A stretch of 64,000 nucleotides of DNA from Solirubrobacteraceae bacterium (GTDB lineage Bacteria > Actinomycetota > Thermoleophilia > Solirubrobacterales > Solirubrobacteraceae), in contig JAJCYD010000023.1 in assembly GCA_029263125.1 (NCBI GenBank), positions 1-64,000 of the forward strand, given 5' to 3'. The notes under the pieces were generated by a model. It had not been told where the DNA came from, searched no databases, and saw nothing but the letters and a program-made list of their open reading frames with translations. Below, piece by piece: positions 54,732 through 61,561 of the stretch (the first letter of the stretch is position 1; the number at the start of each line of letters is the position of its first letter). The translations under genes and the position numbers were made by a program.

Positions 54732-56252
54732 CTAGTGGACGGACCGCCGGCGGCGCAGCACGCGCCGGTCGTCGGGGAGGCGCTTGGTGAAGCGCGCCTG
54801 GTCGAGATGCTCGAGCAGCGCCTCGGCGTACTTGCGCGACGTCTGCAGCTCGTCGCGCAGCCGCGCGAGCGTCACCGCGCCCTCGTCGTCGATGATCGCG
54901 ACGACGCGGTCGGCGACGGCCGCGAGCGCGTCGCGGTGGGCGTAGAGATCACGGCCGATCCGGACGGCGACGCCGGCCTGGATGAGCGTGGGCAGATGCG
55001 CGGCGCCGGCTCCCAGGTCAGCGCGGGCGGGCGGCTCGTGCCCGGCGGCGAGCAGCCGGTCGGCGAGCTCGATCGCCTCGGGTTGCAGGCCAGGTCCCGA
55101 CGGCGCTTCGGACGCCGCCGGCGTGGGGGAGGCCGGCGCTTCGGACGCCGGCTCGGGCTCGCCGCGCCGCAGCCGGTGCAGACGGGCCAGCACGTCCGGG
55201 CGCCTGCCGTGGCGGCGAGCGCGCGGATCGAGCACCGTGCCGCCCGCGAGCGTGTCGGGCGGCGCGATCGAGCGCACGACGAGCCGGTCGCCGGCGGCGG
55301 CGAGCAGCGGGGACTGCAGGCGCACCTGCCACAGTCCGTCGCCGAGCGCCGCCAGGCGCGCGGGCGCAGCGCGCGTGCCGTGATGCACCATGACGCGCCG
55401 GCCGTGCAGGGCGCCGCGGAGGTCCAGTGCCGCGTCGACGAGGTGCGTGGGCGCGAGCGCCGCCGCCGGATCGGCGAGCGCATCGCCGCGGGCGACGTCG
55501 CCGCGGGCGATCCCGGCGAGGTTGACGGCCACGCGCTGCCCCGCGTGCGCTCGCTCGGCCGGCTGGTCGTGGACCTGCAGCGACCGAACCCGGGCGGGCC
55601 GCTGTGCGGGTAGCAGGGACAGCGTGTCGCCGGCCGCCAGCGTGCCCGACCACAGCGTCCCCGTGACGACCGTGCCGGCGCCATGGATCGTGAATGCGCG
55701 GTCGATGTGCAGGACGGCGGCGCCGTCGCGCCGGCCTTCGCCGTTCGGCGTCAGGAGCGTCGCTGCGCGCTCGAGCGCCGCCGCGACGTCCGCCACGCCC
55801 TCGCCGGTGCGCGCCGAGCACGCCACGATCTCGGAATCGGCGAACAGCTCGGCAGCTTCGGCGGCGGCTCGCTCGGGGGGCGCACGGTCGGCCTTGGTGA
55901 TCGCGACGACGCCGTGCTCGATCCCCAGCGCCGCGAGCACCTCGGCGTGCTCGAGCGTCTGCGGCATGACGCCGTCGTCGGCGGCGATGACCATCAGGTG
56001 GAAGTCGATCCCGGTCGCTCCGGCGACCATCGTCCGCACGAAGCGCTCGTGGCCCGGCACGTCGACGACCGACACGCGCCGGCCCCCGGGGAGCACCAGG
56101 GGTGCGAACCCCAGCTCGATCGACATGCCGCGCGCCTGCTCCTGGGGCAGGCGGTCGGTGTCCACGCCGGTCAGCGCCTGCACGAGCGCCGTCTTGCCGT
56201 GATCGATGTGACCGGCGGTGCCGAGCGTCAGCGCTTCATCCGCGGCGCTCAC
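54732..56252 (-). CDS. selB: selenocysteine-specific elongation factor SelB
   Basis: A 506-residue translational GTPase that brings Sec-tRNA to UGA codons. It has G1 LGTAGHIDHGKTALVQALTG, G2 PQEQARGMSIELGFAPL, G3 VVDVPGHERFVRTMVAG and G4 ITKAD, domains II-III, and a C-terminal winged-helix region (DRVVAIIDDEGAVTLARLRDELQTSRKYAEALLEHLD) that binds the SECIS hairpin; it is shorter than the E. coli protein (614 residues). GTG start overlaps the selA stop (GTGA). It ends the selD-selC-selA-selB set. Confidence 0.94.
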   Translation of the reverse strand: MSAADEALTLGTAGHIDHGKTALVQALTGVDTDRLPQEQARGMSIELGFAPLVLPGGRRVSVVDVPGHERFVRTMVAGATGIDFHLMVIAADDGVMPQTLEHAEVLAALGIEHGVVAITKADRAPPERAAAEAAELFADSEIVACSARTGEGVADVAAALERAATLLTPNGEGRRDGAAVLHIDRAFTIHGAGTVVTGTLWSGTLAAGDTLSLLPAQRPARVRSLQVHDQPAERAHAGQRVAVNLAGIARGDVARGDALADPAAALAPTHLVDAALDLRGALHGRRVMVHHGTRAAPARLAALGDGLWQVRLQSPLLAAAGDRLVVRSIAPPDTLAGGTVLDPRARRHGRRPDVLARLHRLRRGEPEPASEAPASPTPAASEAPSGPGLQPEAIELADRLLAAGHEPPARADLGAGAAHLPTLIQAGVAVRIGRDLYAHRDALAAVADRVVAIIDDEGAVTLARLRDELQTSRKYAEALLEHLDQARFTKRLPDDRRVLRRRRSVH

Positions 56253-57553
56253 GTGCGAGGGACGGCGCACACGGCGCGGGCCACGTCGCGCGCGTCGTCG
56301 TCGGTCAATGTGCGCGGGTCCAGCAGCAGCCGGCCGTCGTGGATGCGGCCCACCACCGCGGGATCGCCGGCCCGCAGGTGGGCGGCGAGGGCGTCCGCGC
56401 CGGCCGGGCCGGGATCGATCGCGACGGCGGGACCCGGCAGCTCGAGCAGGGGCAGCGCACCGCCGCCGACGCGGGCCGTCGACGCCACGACCGTGCCGCC
56501 GGTGGCGTCGGCGAGCTCGTTCGCGCGCCTGCTCAGGGTCGCGTCGCCGGCGTGCAGCATCGCGAGCGCCGGCAGCGCGCGGCGCGCGGCGGCCGGGTCG
56601 CGATACAGCGCCAGGGTGGCCTCGAGGGCGGCCAGCGACAGCTTGTCGATGCGCACGGCTCGCGCGAGCGGATGGCGGCGGCACGCGCCGACGGCCTCGC
56701 GCGTGCCGACCAGCAGCCCCGCCTGCGGGCCGCCCAGCAGCTTGTCGCCAGAGAACGTCGTGAGCGCCGCGCCGGCGCGCACGGACCGGCGCACCGGCGG
56801 CTCGCCCGCGAGCAGATCGAGGTCGTCGCCCAGCACGCCCGAGCCGACGTCGTCGATGACCGATGCGCCGAGGTCGCAGAGCTCCTCGATCTCGACCTCT
56901 TCGACGAAGCCGACCGTGCGGAAGTTCGACGGATGCGCGCGCAGGATCGCCCCGATGCGCTCGCCTCCCGCGGCGAGCGCGGACGCGTAGTCGGCCCGGC
57001 GCGTGCGGTTCGTCGTGCCCACCTCGACGAGCCGCGTGCCCGCGGCCTGGAGAACCTCGGGAATGCGGAAGCCGCCGCCGATCTCGATCAGCTGCCCGCG
57101 CGAGACGACGGTGTCGCGGCCACCGGCCAGCGCGGCGCAGGCCAGCAGCACCGCCGCGGCGCAGTTGTTGACGGCCATCGCGGCCTGCGCGCCGGTGAGC
57201 TCCAGCAGCAGCGCCTCGACATGGTCGTGGCGCGAGCCGCGCTCGCCGCTGCTCAGATCGAGTTCGAGGTTGCAGTAGCCGGCGGCGATCGCGGCCACCG
57301 CGGCCTGCGCCTCGACGGCGAGCGGCGCGCGGCCGAGGTTCGTGTGGACGACGACGCCGGTGGCGTTGAGCACGCGCCGGAGGTGAGGGCGCAGGCGCGC
57401 CCGCGCCCGTGCGACGAGATCGACCGCTGCGCCGTCGGTCGGATCGCCGCCGCCGAGGATCTCCTCGCGCCGCGCCTCCAACTCGGCGCGCGCGACCGCC
57501 GTCGCCAGGCGGTCGACGGACGGCAGGTCGCGCAGACGGTCGCGGTTGCTCAT
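56249..57553 (-). CDS. selA: L-seryl-tRNA(Sec) selenium transferase
   Basis: A 434-residue PLP enzyme that turns Ser-tRNA(Sec) into Sec-tRNA(Sec) with selenophosphate. The family segments are NATGVVVHTNLGRAPL, the GLYxNLE-like YCNLELDLSSGERGSRHDHVE, AVNNCAAAVLLA, RAHPSNFRTVGFVEEVEI, DDVGSGVL and the PLP Lys in FSGDKLLGGPQAGLLVG. Its ATG at 57553 begins one base after the 3' end of tRNA-Sec, so no ordinary leader exists once that tRNA is processed. Confidence 0.95.
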   Translation of the reverse strand: MSNRDRLRDLPSVDRLATAVARAELEARREEILGGGDPTDGAAVDLVARARARLRPHLRRVLNATGVVVHTNLGRAPLAVEAQAAVAAIAAGYCNLELDLSSGERGSRHDHVEALLLELTGAQAAMAVNNCAAAVLLACAALAGGRDTVVSRGQLIEIGGGFRIPEVLQAAGTRLVEVGTTNRTRRADYASALAAGGERIGAILRAHPSNFRTVGFVEEVEIEELCDLGASVIDDVGSGVLGDDLDLLAGEPPVRRSVRAGAALTTFSGDKLLGGPQAGLLVGTREAVGACRRHPLARAVRIDKLSLAALEATLALYRDPAAARRALPALAMLHAGDATLSRRANELADATGGTVVASTARVGGGALPLLELPGPAVAIDPGPAGADALAAHLRAGDPAVVGRIHDGRLLLDPRTLTDDDARDVARAVCAVPRT

Positions 57554-57554
57554 A

Positions 57555-57645
57555 CGGAACGGCGAAGGAGTCGAACCTTCCAGCGCGGTCTGCCGCGCCC
57601 CGCCGGTTTTGAAGACCGGATGGGCCACCGGGCCCGGGCCGCTCC
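57555..57645 (-). tRNA. selC: tRNA-Sec (anticodon TCA)
   Basis: A 91-base selenocysteine tRNA without an encoded CCA. The acceptor stem has 8 pairs (57645-57638 with 57563-57556), longer than the usual 7. The anticodon stem pairs CCGGT with ACCGG around CTTCAAA, anticodon TCA at 57612-57610. The long variable arm is a perfect 6-bp stem (GCGCGG / CCGCGC around CAGA), and the T arm is GAAGG-TTCGACT-CCTTC. These are the hallmarks of bacterial tRNA-Sec. It lies between selD and selA on the same strand. Confidence 0.96.
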
Positions 57646-57671
57646 AGGCTGATCGAGCCCGTGCCCGGCGA

Positions 57672-58703
57672 TCATCGCACCGAGATGACGCCGGGCTCAC
57701 CGGCGACGATCTCGCCGACGACCGCGCCCGGCAGCGACGCGGCGGCCTCGGCCGCGACCGCGACGAGCAGGCCGCCGGACGTCGTCGCATCGCACACCAG
57801 GCGCCTGCGGGCCTCCTCGACGTCGGTGGCGAACGTGGAGAACGTCTCCGCATACTCGCGGTTGCGGCGGCTGCCGCCCGAGACGGCGTCGTCGCCGGCG
57901 AGCAGCTCCAGCGCGCCGTCGATCGCCGGCACGGCCGCTGCGTCGATCACCGCCGCCACGCCGCTCGCGCGCCCCAGCGAGTGCAGGTGGCCGAGCAACC
58001 CGAAGCCGGTGACGTCGGTCATCGCGTGGGCCTTGGCACCGCGCGCGGCGGCGGAGGCCGTGTCGTTGAGCTGGGTCATCGTGTCGACCGCGCGTGCGAG
58101 CAGCTCGTCGTCGCGGCGTCCGCGCTTGCGCGCCGTCGTGATCGCGCCGACGCCGAGCGGCTTGGTCAGCACGAGCACATCGCCCGCCCGCGCGCCCGCG
58201 TTGGAGATCAGCTCGTGGGGGTGCACGGTGCCGGTGACCGACATGCCGTACTTCGGCTCCGGGTCATCGATCGAGTGGCCGCCGACGACCGCGATCCCGG
58301 CCGCCGTCGCGACGTCCGCGCCACCGCGCAGGATCTCGCGCAGGATGTCGCCGCCGAGCTGCTCGAGAGGGAACGCGACGACGTTCATCGCCGCCAGCGG
58401 CAGGCCGCCCATCGCGTAGACGTCTGACAGCGCGTTCGCCGCCGCGATCCGGCCGAAGTCGTAGGGGTCGTCGACGATCGGCGTGAAGAAGTCGATCGTC
58501 ATCACGAGCGCGATCTCGTCGGTGAGTTGGAACACCGCGGCGTCATCGGCGGTGTTGGAGCCGACGAGCAGCCGCCGATCGTCGACGGCTGGCAGTCCCC
58601 GGACGATTGGCAGCAGCGCCGCCGCCGGGAGCTTGCATCCACAGCCCGCGCCGTGCGCGAGCGACGTCAGCGCGACGGTTGCCACTGCGTTGGATGCGCT
58701 CAC
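57672..58703 (-). CDS. selD: selenophosphate synthase (Cys form)
   Basis: A 343-residue enzyme that makes selenophosphate from selenide and ATP. The catalytic loop is SLAHGAGCGCKLPA, with Cys21 where many homologues have selenocysteine, and Lys24. Further motifs are VGSNTADDAAVF, TIDFFTPIVDDPYDFGRIAAANALSDVYAMGG, VVGGHSIDDPEPKYGMSVTG and AMTDVTGFGLLGHL. Being a Cys form, it does not depend on its own product. It is first of the selD-selC-selA-selB order on the minus strand. Confidence 0.95.
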   Translation of the reverse strand: MSASNAVATVALTSLAHGAGCGCKLPAAALLPIVRGLPAVDDRRLLVGSNTADDAAVFQLTDEIALVMTIDFFTPIVDDPYDFGRIAAANALSDVYAMGGLPLAAMNVVAFPLEQLGGDILREILRGGADVATAAGIAVVGGHSIDDPEPKYGMSVTGTVHPHELISNAGARAGDVLVLTKPLGVGAITTARKRGRRDDELLARAVDTMTQLNDTASAAARGAKAHAMTDVTGFGLLGHLHSLGRASGVAAVIDAAAVPAIDGALELLAGDDAVSGGSRRNREYAETFSTFATDVEEARRRLVCDATTSGGLLVAVAAEAAASLPGAVVGEIVAGEPGVISVR

Positions 58704-58991
58704 GGCCGTCGGGCTGGGCGGGTCATCTTGTGGGCGTCGGGATACACGATTCGTGGTCGCACGTTACCCGCTGGTGGCCAGAACGCCAGCGGCGGATGGT
58801 GATCGTCCGCATGACGAGGTTGCGCGGCGGCGCGCCGGCAGCGCGCACGCCGGCCGGGTTGCTCGTGGACGTCCAACAGCGCGCCACACCTGTAACGGGC
58901 GCGCCGTGCGCGGAGGCATCGCCGCCGGTCGTGGCGTGCCTCGCCGCGAGCTAATACCCTGTGACGTCGACGGCGGGAAGGAGCCGAGAAG
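58704..58991. promoter_or_regulatory. divergent selD / grd control region
   Basis: 288 bp between the selD start and the grdE start with no gene. TAATAC at 58952-58957 is a likely -10 box for the grd operon, 35 bp before the GTG. AAGGAG (58979-58984) is the ribosome binding site of grdE. I searched for a glycine riboswitch by eye and saw none. Confidence 0.5.
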
Positions 58992-60263
58992 GTGCAAGCA
59001 CAGGCCGGGGCAGGACTGACGCGAATCGTCCACGATGTGCGCGGGCTTGACCTGGGCGAGCGCACGACCTACGAGGCGGGACGCGTCACGGTCGGCGAGG
59101 ACAGCGTGCTCACGCTCCTGCGCGACCCCGCGTTCGCCGAGATCCGGCTGGGATGCGCGAGCCCGGGCGACAGCGTGCGGATCGTGGGCGTGCTCGACGC
59201 CGTCCAGCCCTGCTCCAAGGGTCCTGGCGGGGGCGGCGTCTTCCCCGGATTGCTCGGTCCCCCGATGCCCGTGGGACGTGGCGAGACGCACGTGCTGCGC
59301 GGGGCGGCGGTGCTGGCCGCCGGGTTCCTGCCCCGCGCGCAGGAGGCGGTCATCGACATGTCGGGGCCGGCGGCGCCGCTGTCGCCGCTCGCCGCGACGC
59401 ACAACCTCGTCGTCGAGTGGACGCCCGCCGAGGACGCCTCCTGGGAGGACGTCGACCACGCGCTGCGGCGCGGGCTGGTCAAGGTTGCGGCCCACCTCGC
59501 CGAGGCCGCTCTGGAGGCCGAGCCCGACGGCGTCGAGGAGCTGTCCGAACCCGCCGCATCGACGGGGAACGGCACGCCGCGCGTCGGCGTCATCCTCAAC
59601 CTCCAGACGCAGGGTAAGTTCAAGGACGTCTTCGTCTACGGGCGCAGCCTGTCGGGCGGCCTGCCGACCGTCATCTCGCCGACCGAGCTCGATGACGGCG
59701 CCGTGGTCAGCGGCCAGTTCGGCCACCCCGCGCTGAAGAACCCCACATACCTGCACCAGACCCATCCCGTTGTCGCCGCTCTGCGCGCCAGCGACGAGCT
59801 GCACCTGGCGGCGCTCGTCCTGTGCCCCGAGCCCGTCAACCAGGCCGACAAGGAGCTCGTGTCCGCCCACGCCGCGCGGCTGTGCGCGGCATTGAAGCTC
59901 GACGCGGCGATCGCGACGAAGGAGGGCGGCGGCAACGCCGACGCCGACGTCTCGCTGAAGATGGATCGCCTCGAGGAGGAGGGGATCGCGACGGTCGGCA
60001 TCCTCGCCGAGATGGCGGGGCGCGACGGAACCGGGCCGCCGCTGGTCGTCCCACCCACCAAGGCCAACGCCCTCGTCAGCACCGGGAACTACGATGAGCG
60101 AATGACCTTGCCCGCAGTCGACCGCGCGCTGGGCCGCGACCGGATCGCCCTGCTCGACCAGCCGTCCACCGACGAGATCGAGCTGCCCGTCGCTGTCATC
60201 TACTGCGCGCAGAGCACGCTTGGCTGGGGCCGGCTCACGTGCGCGGAGCCGGCGATCGCCTGA
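58992..60263 (+). CDS. grdE: glycine reductase complex B proprotein GrdE
   Basis: A 423-residue proprotein of the glycine-specific substrate-activating protein B. Known GrdE is cleaved at a Cys to give two subunits, one with a pyruvoyl group that forms a Schiff base with glycine. Matching segments include GDSVRIVGVLDAVQPCSKGPGGGGVFPG, TDSAAVLA-like DMSGPAAPLSP, TPRVGVILNLQTQGKFKDVFVYGR, NPTYLHQTHPVV and ATKEGGGNADADVSLKMDRLEE. I cannot fix the cleavage Cys with certainty. The stop overlaps grdB (TGATG). Confidence 0.9.
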   Translation: MQAQAGAGLTRIVHDVRGLDLGERTTYEAGRVTVGEDSVLTLLRDPAFAEIRLGCASPGDSVRIVGVLDAVQPCSKGPGGGGVFPGLLGPPMPVGRGETHVLRGAAVLAAGFLPRAQEAVIDMSGPAAPLSPLAATHNLVVEWTPAEDASWEDVDHALRRGLVKVAAHLAEAALEAEPDGVEELSEPAASTGNGTPRVGVILNLQTQGKFKDVFVYGRSLSGGLPTVISPTELDDGAVVSGQFGHPALKNPTYLHQTHPVVAALRASDELHLAALVLCPEPVNQADKELVSAHAARLCAALKLDAAIATKEGGGNADADVSLKMDRLEEEGIATVGILAEMAGRDGTGPPLVVPPTKANALVSTGNYDERMTLPAVDRALGRDRIALLDQPSTDEIELPVAVIYCAQSTLGWGRLTCAEPAIA

Positions 60264-61561
60264 TGCGCGTCGTCCACTACGTCAACCAGTTCTTCGCCGG
60301 CATCGGAGGCGAGGACTCCGCGGGCAGCGGGCCGGAGCTGCGCGATGGCGCCACGGGACCCGGACGCAAGCTGGCGAGCCTGCTGGGCGACGAGCACGAG
60401 ATCATCGCCACCGCCGTCTGCGGCGACGACTACGCCGCCGCGCACGCCGAGTTCGCCGCCGAGCTCGTCTCCGGCGCCCGCGAGCGTGGCGCCGAGATGA
60501 TCCTGGCCGGTCCCGCCTTCACGAGCGGGCGCTACGGCATGGCGTGCGCGCGGATCGCGGCGGCGGCCAGCGAGGCCGGCCTGCCCGCGCTGGCCTGCAT
60601 GCATCCCGACAACCCCGGCCTCGGCGAAGCCGCCGGCACGACGGTCGTGCAAAGCGGGCTGACCGCGCGCCAGATGAAGGACTCGCTGGAGCGCTTCGCC
60701 GCGGCGGCGCTGAAGGTGGCCGCGGGCGAGGAGCTCACCGCGCAGGACGGGCGCATCGGCCCGGTCGCTCGCGCGAACCGCCTGGCCGATCACAACGCGG
60801 CCGAGCGCGCCGTCGCGCTCGTGATCACGCGCCTGGGCGGCGATCGCGACGCCACCGAGATCCCCCTCCCCGACTTCGACAGCGTCACGCCTGCCGCGCC
60901 CATCGACGATGCCGCGCAGGCGCTGTTCGCGCTCGTGACGGAGGGCGGCTTCGTGCCCGTCGGCAACCCCGATCGCCTGGAGTCCGCTCGCGCGACGAAG
61001 TGGGTGCGCTACTCACTGGACGGCCTGGACTCGGTCGACGAGGGCGCGTTCATGTCCGTGCACGGCGGCTTCTCCACCCAGTGGGCCAACGCCGATCCCA
61101 ACCGCATCCTCCCACTCGACGTCGCCCGCGAGATGGAGCGAGACGGCGCGATCGGACGCCTGCACGGCGAGGTCCTGGCGACGACCGGCAACGGCACTAC
61201 GGTCGCCGACGCGCGCCGCTTCGGCATGGAGTGGGCCGCCGAGCTGCGCCAGCAGAACATCCAGGCGGCGATCCTCACCGCCACCTGAGGAACCGGCACG
61301 CGTTGCGGGTCAACGCTCACGAAGGAACTGGAGCGCGCAGGGATTCCCACGGCGCTGCTGTGCAACCTCGTCTCGATCGCCAAGCGCGTCGGCGCCCCGC
61401 GGATCGTGCCCACGCGCGGCATCCCGTTCCCCGCCGGCGACCCGGAGCTCGGGCCCGCGGCGGAGCGCGCCTGGCGCCGGCAATTGCTTGACCGGGCACT
61501 GCACGCCGTGTCCACGCAGGTCAGCGAGCCGACGGTCTTCGACGGCGATCCGGTTCAATAG
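60263..61561 (+). CDS. grdB: glycine reductase complex B subunit gamma GrdB (selenoprotein)
   Basis: A 432-residue selenoprotein. The frame has an in-frame TGA at codon 342 (61286-61288) and continues for 90 more residues: TATU-GTGTRCGSTLTKELERAGIP, the same context as clostridial GrdB, ending GDPELGPAAERAWRRQLLDRAL. The Sec together with the pyruvoyl group of GrdE receives the carboxymethyl unit of glycine. The start is the ATG at 60263, overlapping the grdE stop. Ordinary gene callers will end this gene at 61288. Confidence 0.95.
61286..61316 (+). promoter_or_regulatory. Sec UGA codon and candidate SECIS in grdB
   Basis: The TGA at 61286-61288 is followed, after 11 nt, by a perfect 6-bp stem GCGTTG (61300-61305) and CAACGC (61311-61316) with a 5-nt loop CGGGT. 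The loop lies 18-22 nt downstream of the UGA, inside the window where bacterial SelB-binding SECIS loops sit, and has the G-rich loop expected. Structure folding would confirm it. Confidence 0.65.

What the first reader, a model, noticed from the sequence alone, without database searches (positions are those of the whole stretch)
57551..57660. selA start codon one base after the tRNA-Sec 3' end
On the minus strand the discriminator base of tRNA-Sec is 57555, then a single T, then the ATG of selA at 57553. If selD-selC-selA is co-transcribed, making the tRNA 3' end would cut the message at the selA start, giving a leaderless selA mRNA or destroying its SD; the T arm and acceptor (TTCGACTCCTTCGCCGTTCC) carry no SD-like sequence. 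tRNA maturation and selA translation could thus be linked: the amount of uncut precursor could set SelA synthesis.
Basis: partly seen in the sequence, partly recalled or inferred. Interest (0 to 1): 0.7.

Follow-up and report, generated by a model that had tools for sequence, protein, structure and literature searches.

The report
Selenocysteine tRNA abutting selA's start codon
In a soil actinobacterium (Solirubrobacteraceae) the gene for the selenocysteine tRNA ends one base before the start codon of the enzyme that loads that tRNA, so the cut that finishes the tRNA probably also makes the start of the enzyme's messenger RNA, as tRNAs do in animal mitochondria, but this has not been measured.

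Summary
On the minus strand tRNA-Sec is 57645..57555 (discriminator G 57555), then one T, then the selA ATG (57553). selD lies upstream and selB overlaps the selA stop.

The junction is not a one-off. It is identical in three further species of the genus and in a contig binned to another genus. A neighbouring lineage has 2 nt, and one distant relative has selB at the same 1-nt distance.

Three results support shared transcription and a cut at G|U. Operonic selC genes lack the TANNNT promoter box of stand-alone selC genes (3/26 against 28/44). All 36 CCA-less tRNAs examined in this genome have T, or CT, after the discriminator, the known RNase Z uracil rule. An RNase Z gene is present. That cut would release a selA-selB message starting U-AUG, essentially leaderless.

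There is no SD to destroy, and the cut need not cost SelA: one precursor can yield both tRNA and message. That SelA output is set by uncut precursor is untested and less likely.

The mechanism resembles mitochondrial tRNA punctuation. Nearly the same geometry was noted in 2021 in a termite-gut selCAB operon (PMC8124441). No transcript data were available.

The parts
57672..58703 (-). selD, selenide water dikinase, first gene of the operon (GTG start, TGA 57674-57672)
   Evidence: TIGR00476 393.9 bits, cut-off 125; translation
57646..57671 (-). 26-nt spacer between selD stop and tRNA-Sec 5' end; no -10-like box (RNase P would cut at its end)
57555..57645 (-). selC, tRNA-Sec (UCA), CCA not encoded; discriminator G at 57555
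   Evidence: ARAGORN, RF01852 67.3 bits, only tRNA-Sec over cut-off in this genome, cloverleaf -50.5 kcal/mol
57554..57554 (-). single T (U74) between discriminator and start codon; fits the uracil rule for RNase Z cleavage
   Evidence: T or CT after the discriminator in 36/36 CCA-less tRNAs of this genome and 41/41 family selC genes; rule: PMC10100781
57551..57553 (-). selA start codon ATG
56249..57553 (-). [quoted passage not shown]
   Evidence: TIGR00474 455.8 bits, PF03841, PDB 3w1h E 8e-90
54732..56252 (-). selB, Sec-specific elongation factor; GTG start overlaps the selA stop (GTGA, 56252-56249), so probably translated by coupling to selA
   Evidence: TIGR00475 324.8 bits, cut-off 242; sequence
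60239..61558 (+). neighbouring selenoprotein gene (GrdB-type reductase) with in-frame TGA at 61286-61288, a client of the operon
   Evidence: TIGR01918 422 bits, cut-off 65

Best explanation
selD, selC, selA and selB form one transcription unit read from upstream of selD. The tRNA-Sec inside it acts as punctuation. RNase P cuts its 5' end and RNase Z, directed by U74, cuts between G73 and U74. The second cut releases both the tRNA (CCA is then added) and a selA-selB message whose 5' end is U-AUG. Ribosomes of this actinobacterium start on that almost leaderless end without an SD, and selB is translated by coupling through the GTGA overlap. Shown by sequence: gene order, the 1-nt junction, absence of an SD, absence of promoter signals, conservation in relatives, the uracil rule and an RNase Z gene. 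Inferred: the exact cut, its efficiency, and that the cut RNA is the translated form.
For: (1) Junction G|T|ATG conserved in G087, G178 (two loci), G395 and the G374 contig; in G374 the selD-selC spacer is completely different but the 1-nt junction is the same. (2) G318 has selA at 2 nt and G270 has selB at 1 nt; on a SelD tree the starts within 10 nt need 5 label changes, at least 4 forced by supported branches, so they did not all come from one event. (3) TANNNT box 4-14 nt before selC: 28/44 stand-alone genes (shuffled mean 2.8, maximum 9) against 3/26 operonic genes (shuffled mean 1.1, maximum 4); no promoter or terminator match in 57400-59000. (4) T or CT after the discriminator in 36/36 CCA-less tRNAs here, T being 14% of bases; in B. 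subtilis a uracil within 2 nt stimulates RNase Z about 200-fold (PMC10100781). (5) RNase Z gene L219, NF000801 264 bits over its cut-off of 252, with the HxHxDH motif. (6) The start codon is predicted unpaired at the 5' end of the released fragment in most relatives. (7) Leaderless initiation is strong in related actinobacteria: about a quarter of mycobacterial transcripts (PMC4633059) and 264 in Streptomyces counting leaders under 10 nt (PMC4681348). (8) The genome has one tRNA-Sec over the cut-off and one selA, so both products must come from this locus.
Against: In M. tuberculosis start codons at +1 appear to work better than those at +2 to +5 (PMC4633059), so a U-AUG end may be weak. A 5'-monophosphate fragment could be degraded quickly. 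The promoter scan is consensus-based and would miss unusual promoters. In other family operons the next gene starts 21-46 nt after the tRNA, so a very short gap is not universal. The TIGR02651 RNase Z model is narrowly missed (285 against 293 bits), although another RNase Z model passes.
Confidence: 0.55

Rival explanations
1. Tight packing without linkage. The genes merely lie close in an operon; SelA is made at low level by SD-independent initiation on whatever RNA is present, and the cut has no consequence.
For: Gap lengths in the family run from 1 nt to over 100 nt. Most family genes that start 21-46 nt after selC also lack an SD by inspection, so SD-less initiation there does not require a 1-nt junction.
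Against: The 1-nt gap stayed fixed while the spacer on the other side of the tRNA changed, and short gaps did not arise only once.
Confidence: 0.2
2. One reading: uncut selC-selA RNA is the translated form, and tRNA maturation switches SelA off, so free precursor sets SelA level.
For: The cut falls at the start codon; a processed 5'-monophosphate fragment may be unstable.
Against: There is no SD upstream. The AUG is 1 nt from a very stable cloverleaf, which should hinder a 30S subunit. The cut leaves the whole reading frame intact.
Confidence: 0.12
3. A promoter inside selC gives a primary leaderless selA transcript, independent of tRNA processing.
For: Leaderless primary transcripts are common in actinobacteria.
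Against: No -10-like box fits upstream of 57553 and no promoter match was found; the bases are fixed by the tRNA.
Confidence: 0.06
4. Ribosomes ending selD re-initiate at selA, the folded tRNA bringing the two sites close.
For: selD stop is 26 nt from the tRNA, and in L176 about 8 nt. In G011 selA is coupled to an inserted upstream gene.
Against: 118 nt separate stop and start, and RNase P and RNase Z would cut the path.
Confidence: 0.05
5. selA is translated from an upstream in-frame start, running through the tRNA gene.
For: The frame is open for 395 nt upstream here.
Against: L053 has no upstream in-frame start, L176 only a GTG inside the tRNA; homology begins at the ATG.
Confidence: 0.02

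Closest known systems
tRNA punctuation of animal mitochondrial transcripts (Ojala, Montoya and Attardi 1981, as cited in PMC10941002 and PMC5203842; RNase P plus RNase Z)
   Same: A tRNA inside a polycistronic RNA; RNase Z cut at the tRNA 3' end; message starts at or within a few nt of the start codon, without SD.
   Different: One tRNA in one operon of a 3.75-Mb genome whose other genes partly use SDs; the tRNA is the substrate of the enzyme encoded next to it; no RNA evidence yet.
tRNA-Sec ending at -2 of selA in a termite-gut selCAB operon (2021, PMC8124441, one sentence in the Discussion)
   Same: Essentially the same geometry; expression control of SelA and SelB suggested.
   Different: A different, uncultured lineage; no selD upstream mentioned; no processing mechanism or comparative test given there.
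selC nested in selB in Alphaproteobacteria (PMC8124441)
   Same: tRNA-Sec maturation and Sec-machinery mRNA share one RNA.
   Different: There the cut would destroy selB mRNA, giving alternative products. Here the cut separates two intact products.
Leaderless mRNAs of actinobacteria (PMC4633059 for mycobacteria; PMC4681348 for Streptomyces)
   Same: SD-less start at or next to the 5' end.
   Different: Those 5' ends come from transcription starts. Here the end would come from tRNA processing and carries one extra U.
selA-selB-selC order with selC last and CCA often encoded (Rubrobacter and others)
   Same: Same genes.
   Different: The tRNA follows the coding genes, so its maturation does not touch a start codon.

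Membership tests
tRNA-Sec (Rfam RF01852) | Covariance model score over gathering cut-off, UCA anticodon, 8-bp acceptor stem | tested here: met
   67.3 bits against 47; anticodon TCA; fold
SelA (TIGR00474) | Score over curated cut-off over nearly the full length | tested here: met
   455.8 bits against 267.9, residues 17-428
tRNA punctuation | tRNA directly abuts the reading frame in one transcription unit | tested here: met
   1-nt junction; no own promoter signal for selC or selA. Co-transcription itself is inferred
tRNA punctuation | mRNA 5' end made by the tRNA 3'-processing cut | not testable with these tools
   Needs RNA 5'-end mapping; the RNase Z gene and the uracil signal are present
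Leaderless mRNA | Start codon at or within a few nt of the mature 5' end, no SD | tested here: inconclusive
   No SD and predicted U-AUG end; the end itself has not been mapped
RNase Z substrate (CCA-less pre-tRNA with downstream uracil) | No encoded CCA and a U within 2 nt of the discriminator | tested here: met
   G|TATG; genome-wide rule
selC nested in selB (PMC8124441 type) | tRNA lies inside a translated reading frame | tested here: not met
   selA starts after the tRNA; an upstream in-frame start is not conserved

The most novel reading that the evidence does not exclude
A bacterial tRNA-punctuated operon with feedback: tRNA-Sec maturation makes the leaderless message for SelA and SelB, the two proteins that bind this tRNA, and their binding to the precursor slows the RNase P or RNase Z cut, so that the supply of mature tRNA-Sec and of its partners is balanced on one RNA.
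Probability: 0.1. Interest if true: 0.8.

Novelty: new variant of a known kind. Interest (0 to 1): 0.5.

Why it matters
If true, tRNA punctuation, a textbook trait of animal mitochondria, also operates in a free-living bacterium and ties the supply of a tRNA to that of the enzyme that loads it. It would be a defined case of an mRNA 5' end made by tRNA maturation, testable with one 5'-end mapping experiment. It also gives annotators a rule: where a CCA-less tRNA with T at 74 abuts an ATG, expect no SD.

Tried and rejected
Promoter or terminator inside the operon: no match. Another start codon for selA: not conserved. tRNA-Ser called by ARAGORN inside selB (55093-55179): no Rfam support, rejected. 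Precursor fold: the predicted minimum for the 191-nt precursor is an alternative structure 8.5 kcal/mol below the cloverleaf-constrained one; not taken as a switch, because such GC-rich flanks pair easily, the shuffle z-score is only -2 and no conservation of it was tested. Pattern search for tRNA-Sec with a nearby RTG in 396 genomes of the phylum: apart from this window no hit was a selA or selB start. About 100 further SelA loci of the phylum plus 72 from genome contigs (several phyla): selC directly upstream of selA only in G787, with encoded CCA and an ATG about 18 nt after it. Fdh-alpha as selenoprotein client: no internal stop. Literature for bacterial tRNA punctuation: no bacterial case found in the held library apart from PMC8124441.

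Full report
OBSERVATION. The minus strand reads selD stop (57674-57672), 26 nt, tRNA-Sec 57645..57555, T, ATG of selA at 57553. ARAGORN and Rfam agree on the tRNA and its fold leaves G57555 as the discriminator. SelD, SelA and SelB pass their NCBIfam cut-offs. selB begins with GTG overlapping the selA TGA (GTGA), so selA is the entry point for both. The next in-frame start downstream is the TTG at codon 25, and upstream in-frame starts are not conserved, so the ATG is the start. The genome has one tRNA-Sec over the cut-off and one selA. A selenoprotein gene of the GrdB type, with an in-frame TGA in ...ILTATUGTGTRCGSTLTKELE..., lies divergently about 1.5 kb away, so the machinery has a client.

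RELATIVES. Named relatives in genome contigs are Solirubrobacteraceae. The junction CCG|T|ATGAGC is identical in G087, G178 (two loci) and G395, and in a contig binned with G374. In G374 the spacer before the tRNA is different in sequence and length while the junction is the same. G318 has TC-ATG (2 nt). A second gene order, selD-selC-selB, has selB ATG at 1 nt (G270), 4 nt (G388) and GTG at 7 nt (G017). Other members have 10, 21, 22, 24, 34, 37, 40 and more nt. On a SelD tree the label 'start within 10 nt' needs five changes, at least four of them forced by supported branches, so short junctions did not all come from one event. Outside this family, about 100 further SelA loci of the phylum and 72 loci from genome contigs (several phyla) show selC directly upstream of selA only in G787, where CCA is encoded and the ATG lies about 18 nt further on.

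A NATURAL EXPERIMENT. In G011, same genus, about 550 nt separate the tRNA from selA. The insert carries two small ORFs, each preceded by a purine-rich SD-like stretch, and the second overlaps the selA start as ATGA. The bases flanking the insert repeat: GCCGTTCCG at the tRNA end, GCCGTTGCG before T-ATGAGC. This fits an insertion into an ancestral 1-nt junction, after which selA gained translational coupling. It agrees with selA having no initiation signal of its own except the junction.

CO-TRANSCRIPTION. Stand-alone selC genes of the class have a TANNNT box 4-14 nt upstream in 28 of 44 cases (shuffled mean 2.8, maximum 9). selC genes behind selD have one in 3 of 26 (shuffled mean 1.1, maximum 4). 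No promoter or terminator match occurs in 57400-59000. This is indirect but argues that selC and selA are read from upstream.

THE CUT. Of 38 different tRNAs examined in this genome, two encode CCA and the other 36 all have T at position 74 or CT at 74-75, although T makes up 14% of bases. All 41 selC genes tested in the family do the same. In B. subtilis a uracil within 2 nt of the discriminator stimulates RNase Z about 200-fold (PMC10100781, citing Pellegrini 2012). The genome encodes an RNase Z. The lone T before the selA ATG is therefore best read as the RNase Z uracil. With a G discriminator, one nucleotide is then the closest possible start codon (inference).

HOW IT PROBABLY WORKS. The cut after G73 gives the tRNA and an RNA beginning U-AUG. 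Its first three bases are predicted unpaired in all eight sequences folded, and the fourth in seven of them. Leaderless messages are common and well translated in actinobacteria (PMC4633059, PMC4681348), but start codons at +2 to +5 appear weaker than at +1, so moderate expression is expected. In the uncut RNA the AUG sits against a cloverleaf of -50 kcal/mol and no SD is available, so the cut RNA is the likelier template (inference from ribosome geometry). The cut is not destructive: each precursor can give one tRNA and one message. A crude count suggests this genome does use SDs for part of its genes (16/49 putative genes in the window against 6/42 in control positions), so the missing SD is a property of this locus, not of the whole genome.

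WHAT IS KNOWN. Mechanistically this is tRNA punctuation as in animal mitochondria. For bacteria, PMC8124441 mentions a termite-gut selCAB operon whose tRNA-Sec ends at -2 of selA and suggests expression control. Hence the verdict 'new variant of a known kind'. No work on the Solirubrobacteraceae operon, and no processed leaderless message from a bacterial tRNA junction, was found in the held library; absence there is weak evidence.

LIMITS. No RNA or protein measurements; most relatives are metagenome-assembled genomes; G178 shows two copies, which may be mixed strains, and the G374 contig may be mis-binned. Whether SelA or SelB feeds back on the cut is open.

Noticed in passing
58992-60263 (+) and 60239-61558 (+): Divergent pair of reductase genes of the glycine/sarcosine/betaine type; the second is a selenoprotein B with an in-frame TGA at 61286-61288 (TIGR01918 422 bits). 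Gene callers will truncate it at 61288.
   Followed up: partly
L039 / L062 (G011), between selC and selA: About 550-nt insert with two small ORFs (90 and about 80 aa, one with a weak HTH match), near-repeat GCCGTT[C/G]CG at both ends; looks like a small element that entered at the tRNA-Sec 3' end.
   Followed up: partly
55093-55179 (-): ARAGORN tRNA-Ser(cga) inside selB without Rfam support; a false positive.
   Followed up: yes
L216 (own genome): tRNA-Cys followed by a gene resembling macro-domain proteins whose ATG is 11 nt after the discriminator; a possible second tRNA-mRNA junction.
   Followed up: no
L053 (G270): selB, not selA, starts at the same 1-nt distance (G|T|ATGAG) after tRNA-Sec.
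   Followed up: yes
L228 (G787): Another actinobacterial family has selC directly before selA, but with encoded CCA and the ATG about 18 nt after it.
   Followed up: partly
window 57646-57671 and relatives: The 26-nt spacer between selD and selC has constant length in the genus and a recurring GGGC(N)CATCA(G/C)CCT-like core; meaning unknown.
   Followed up: no
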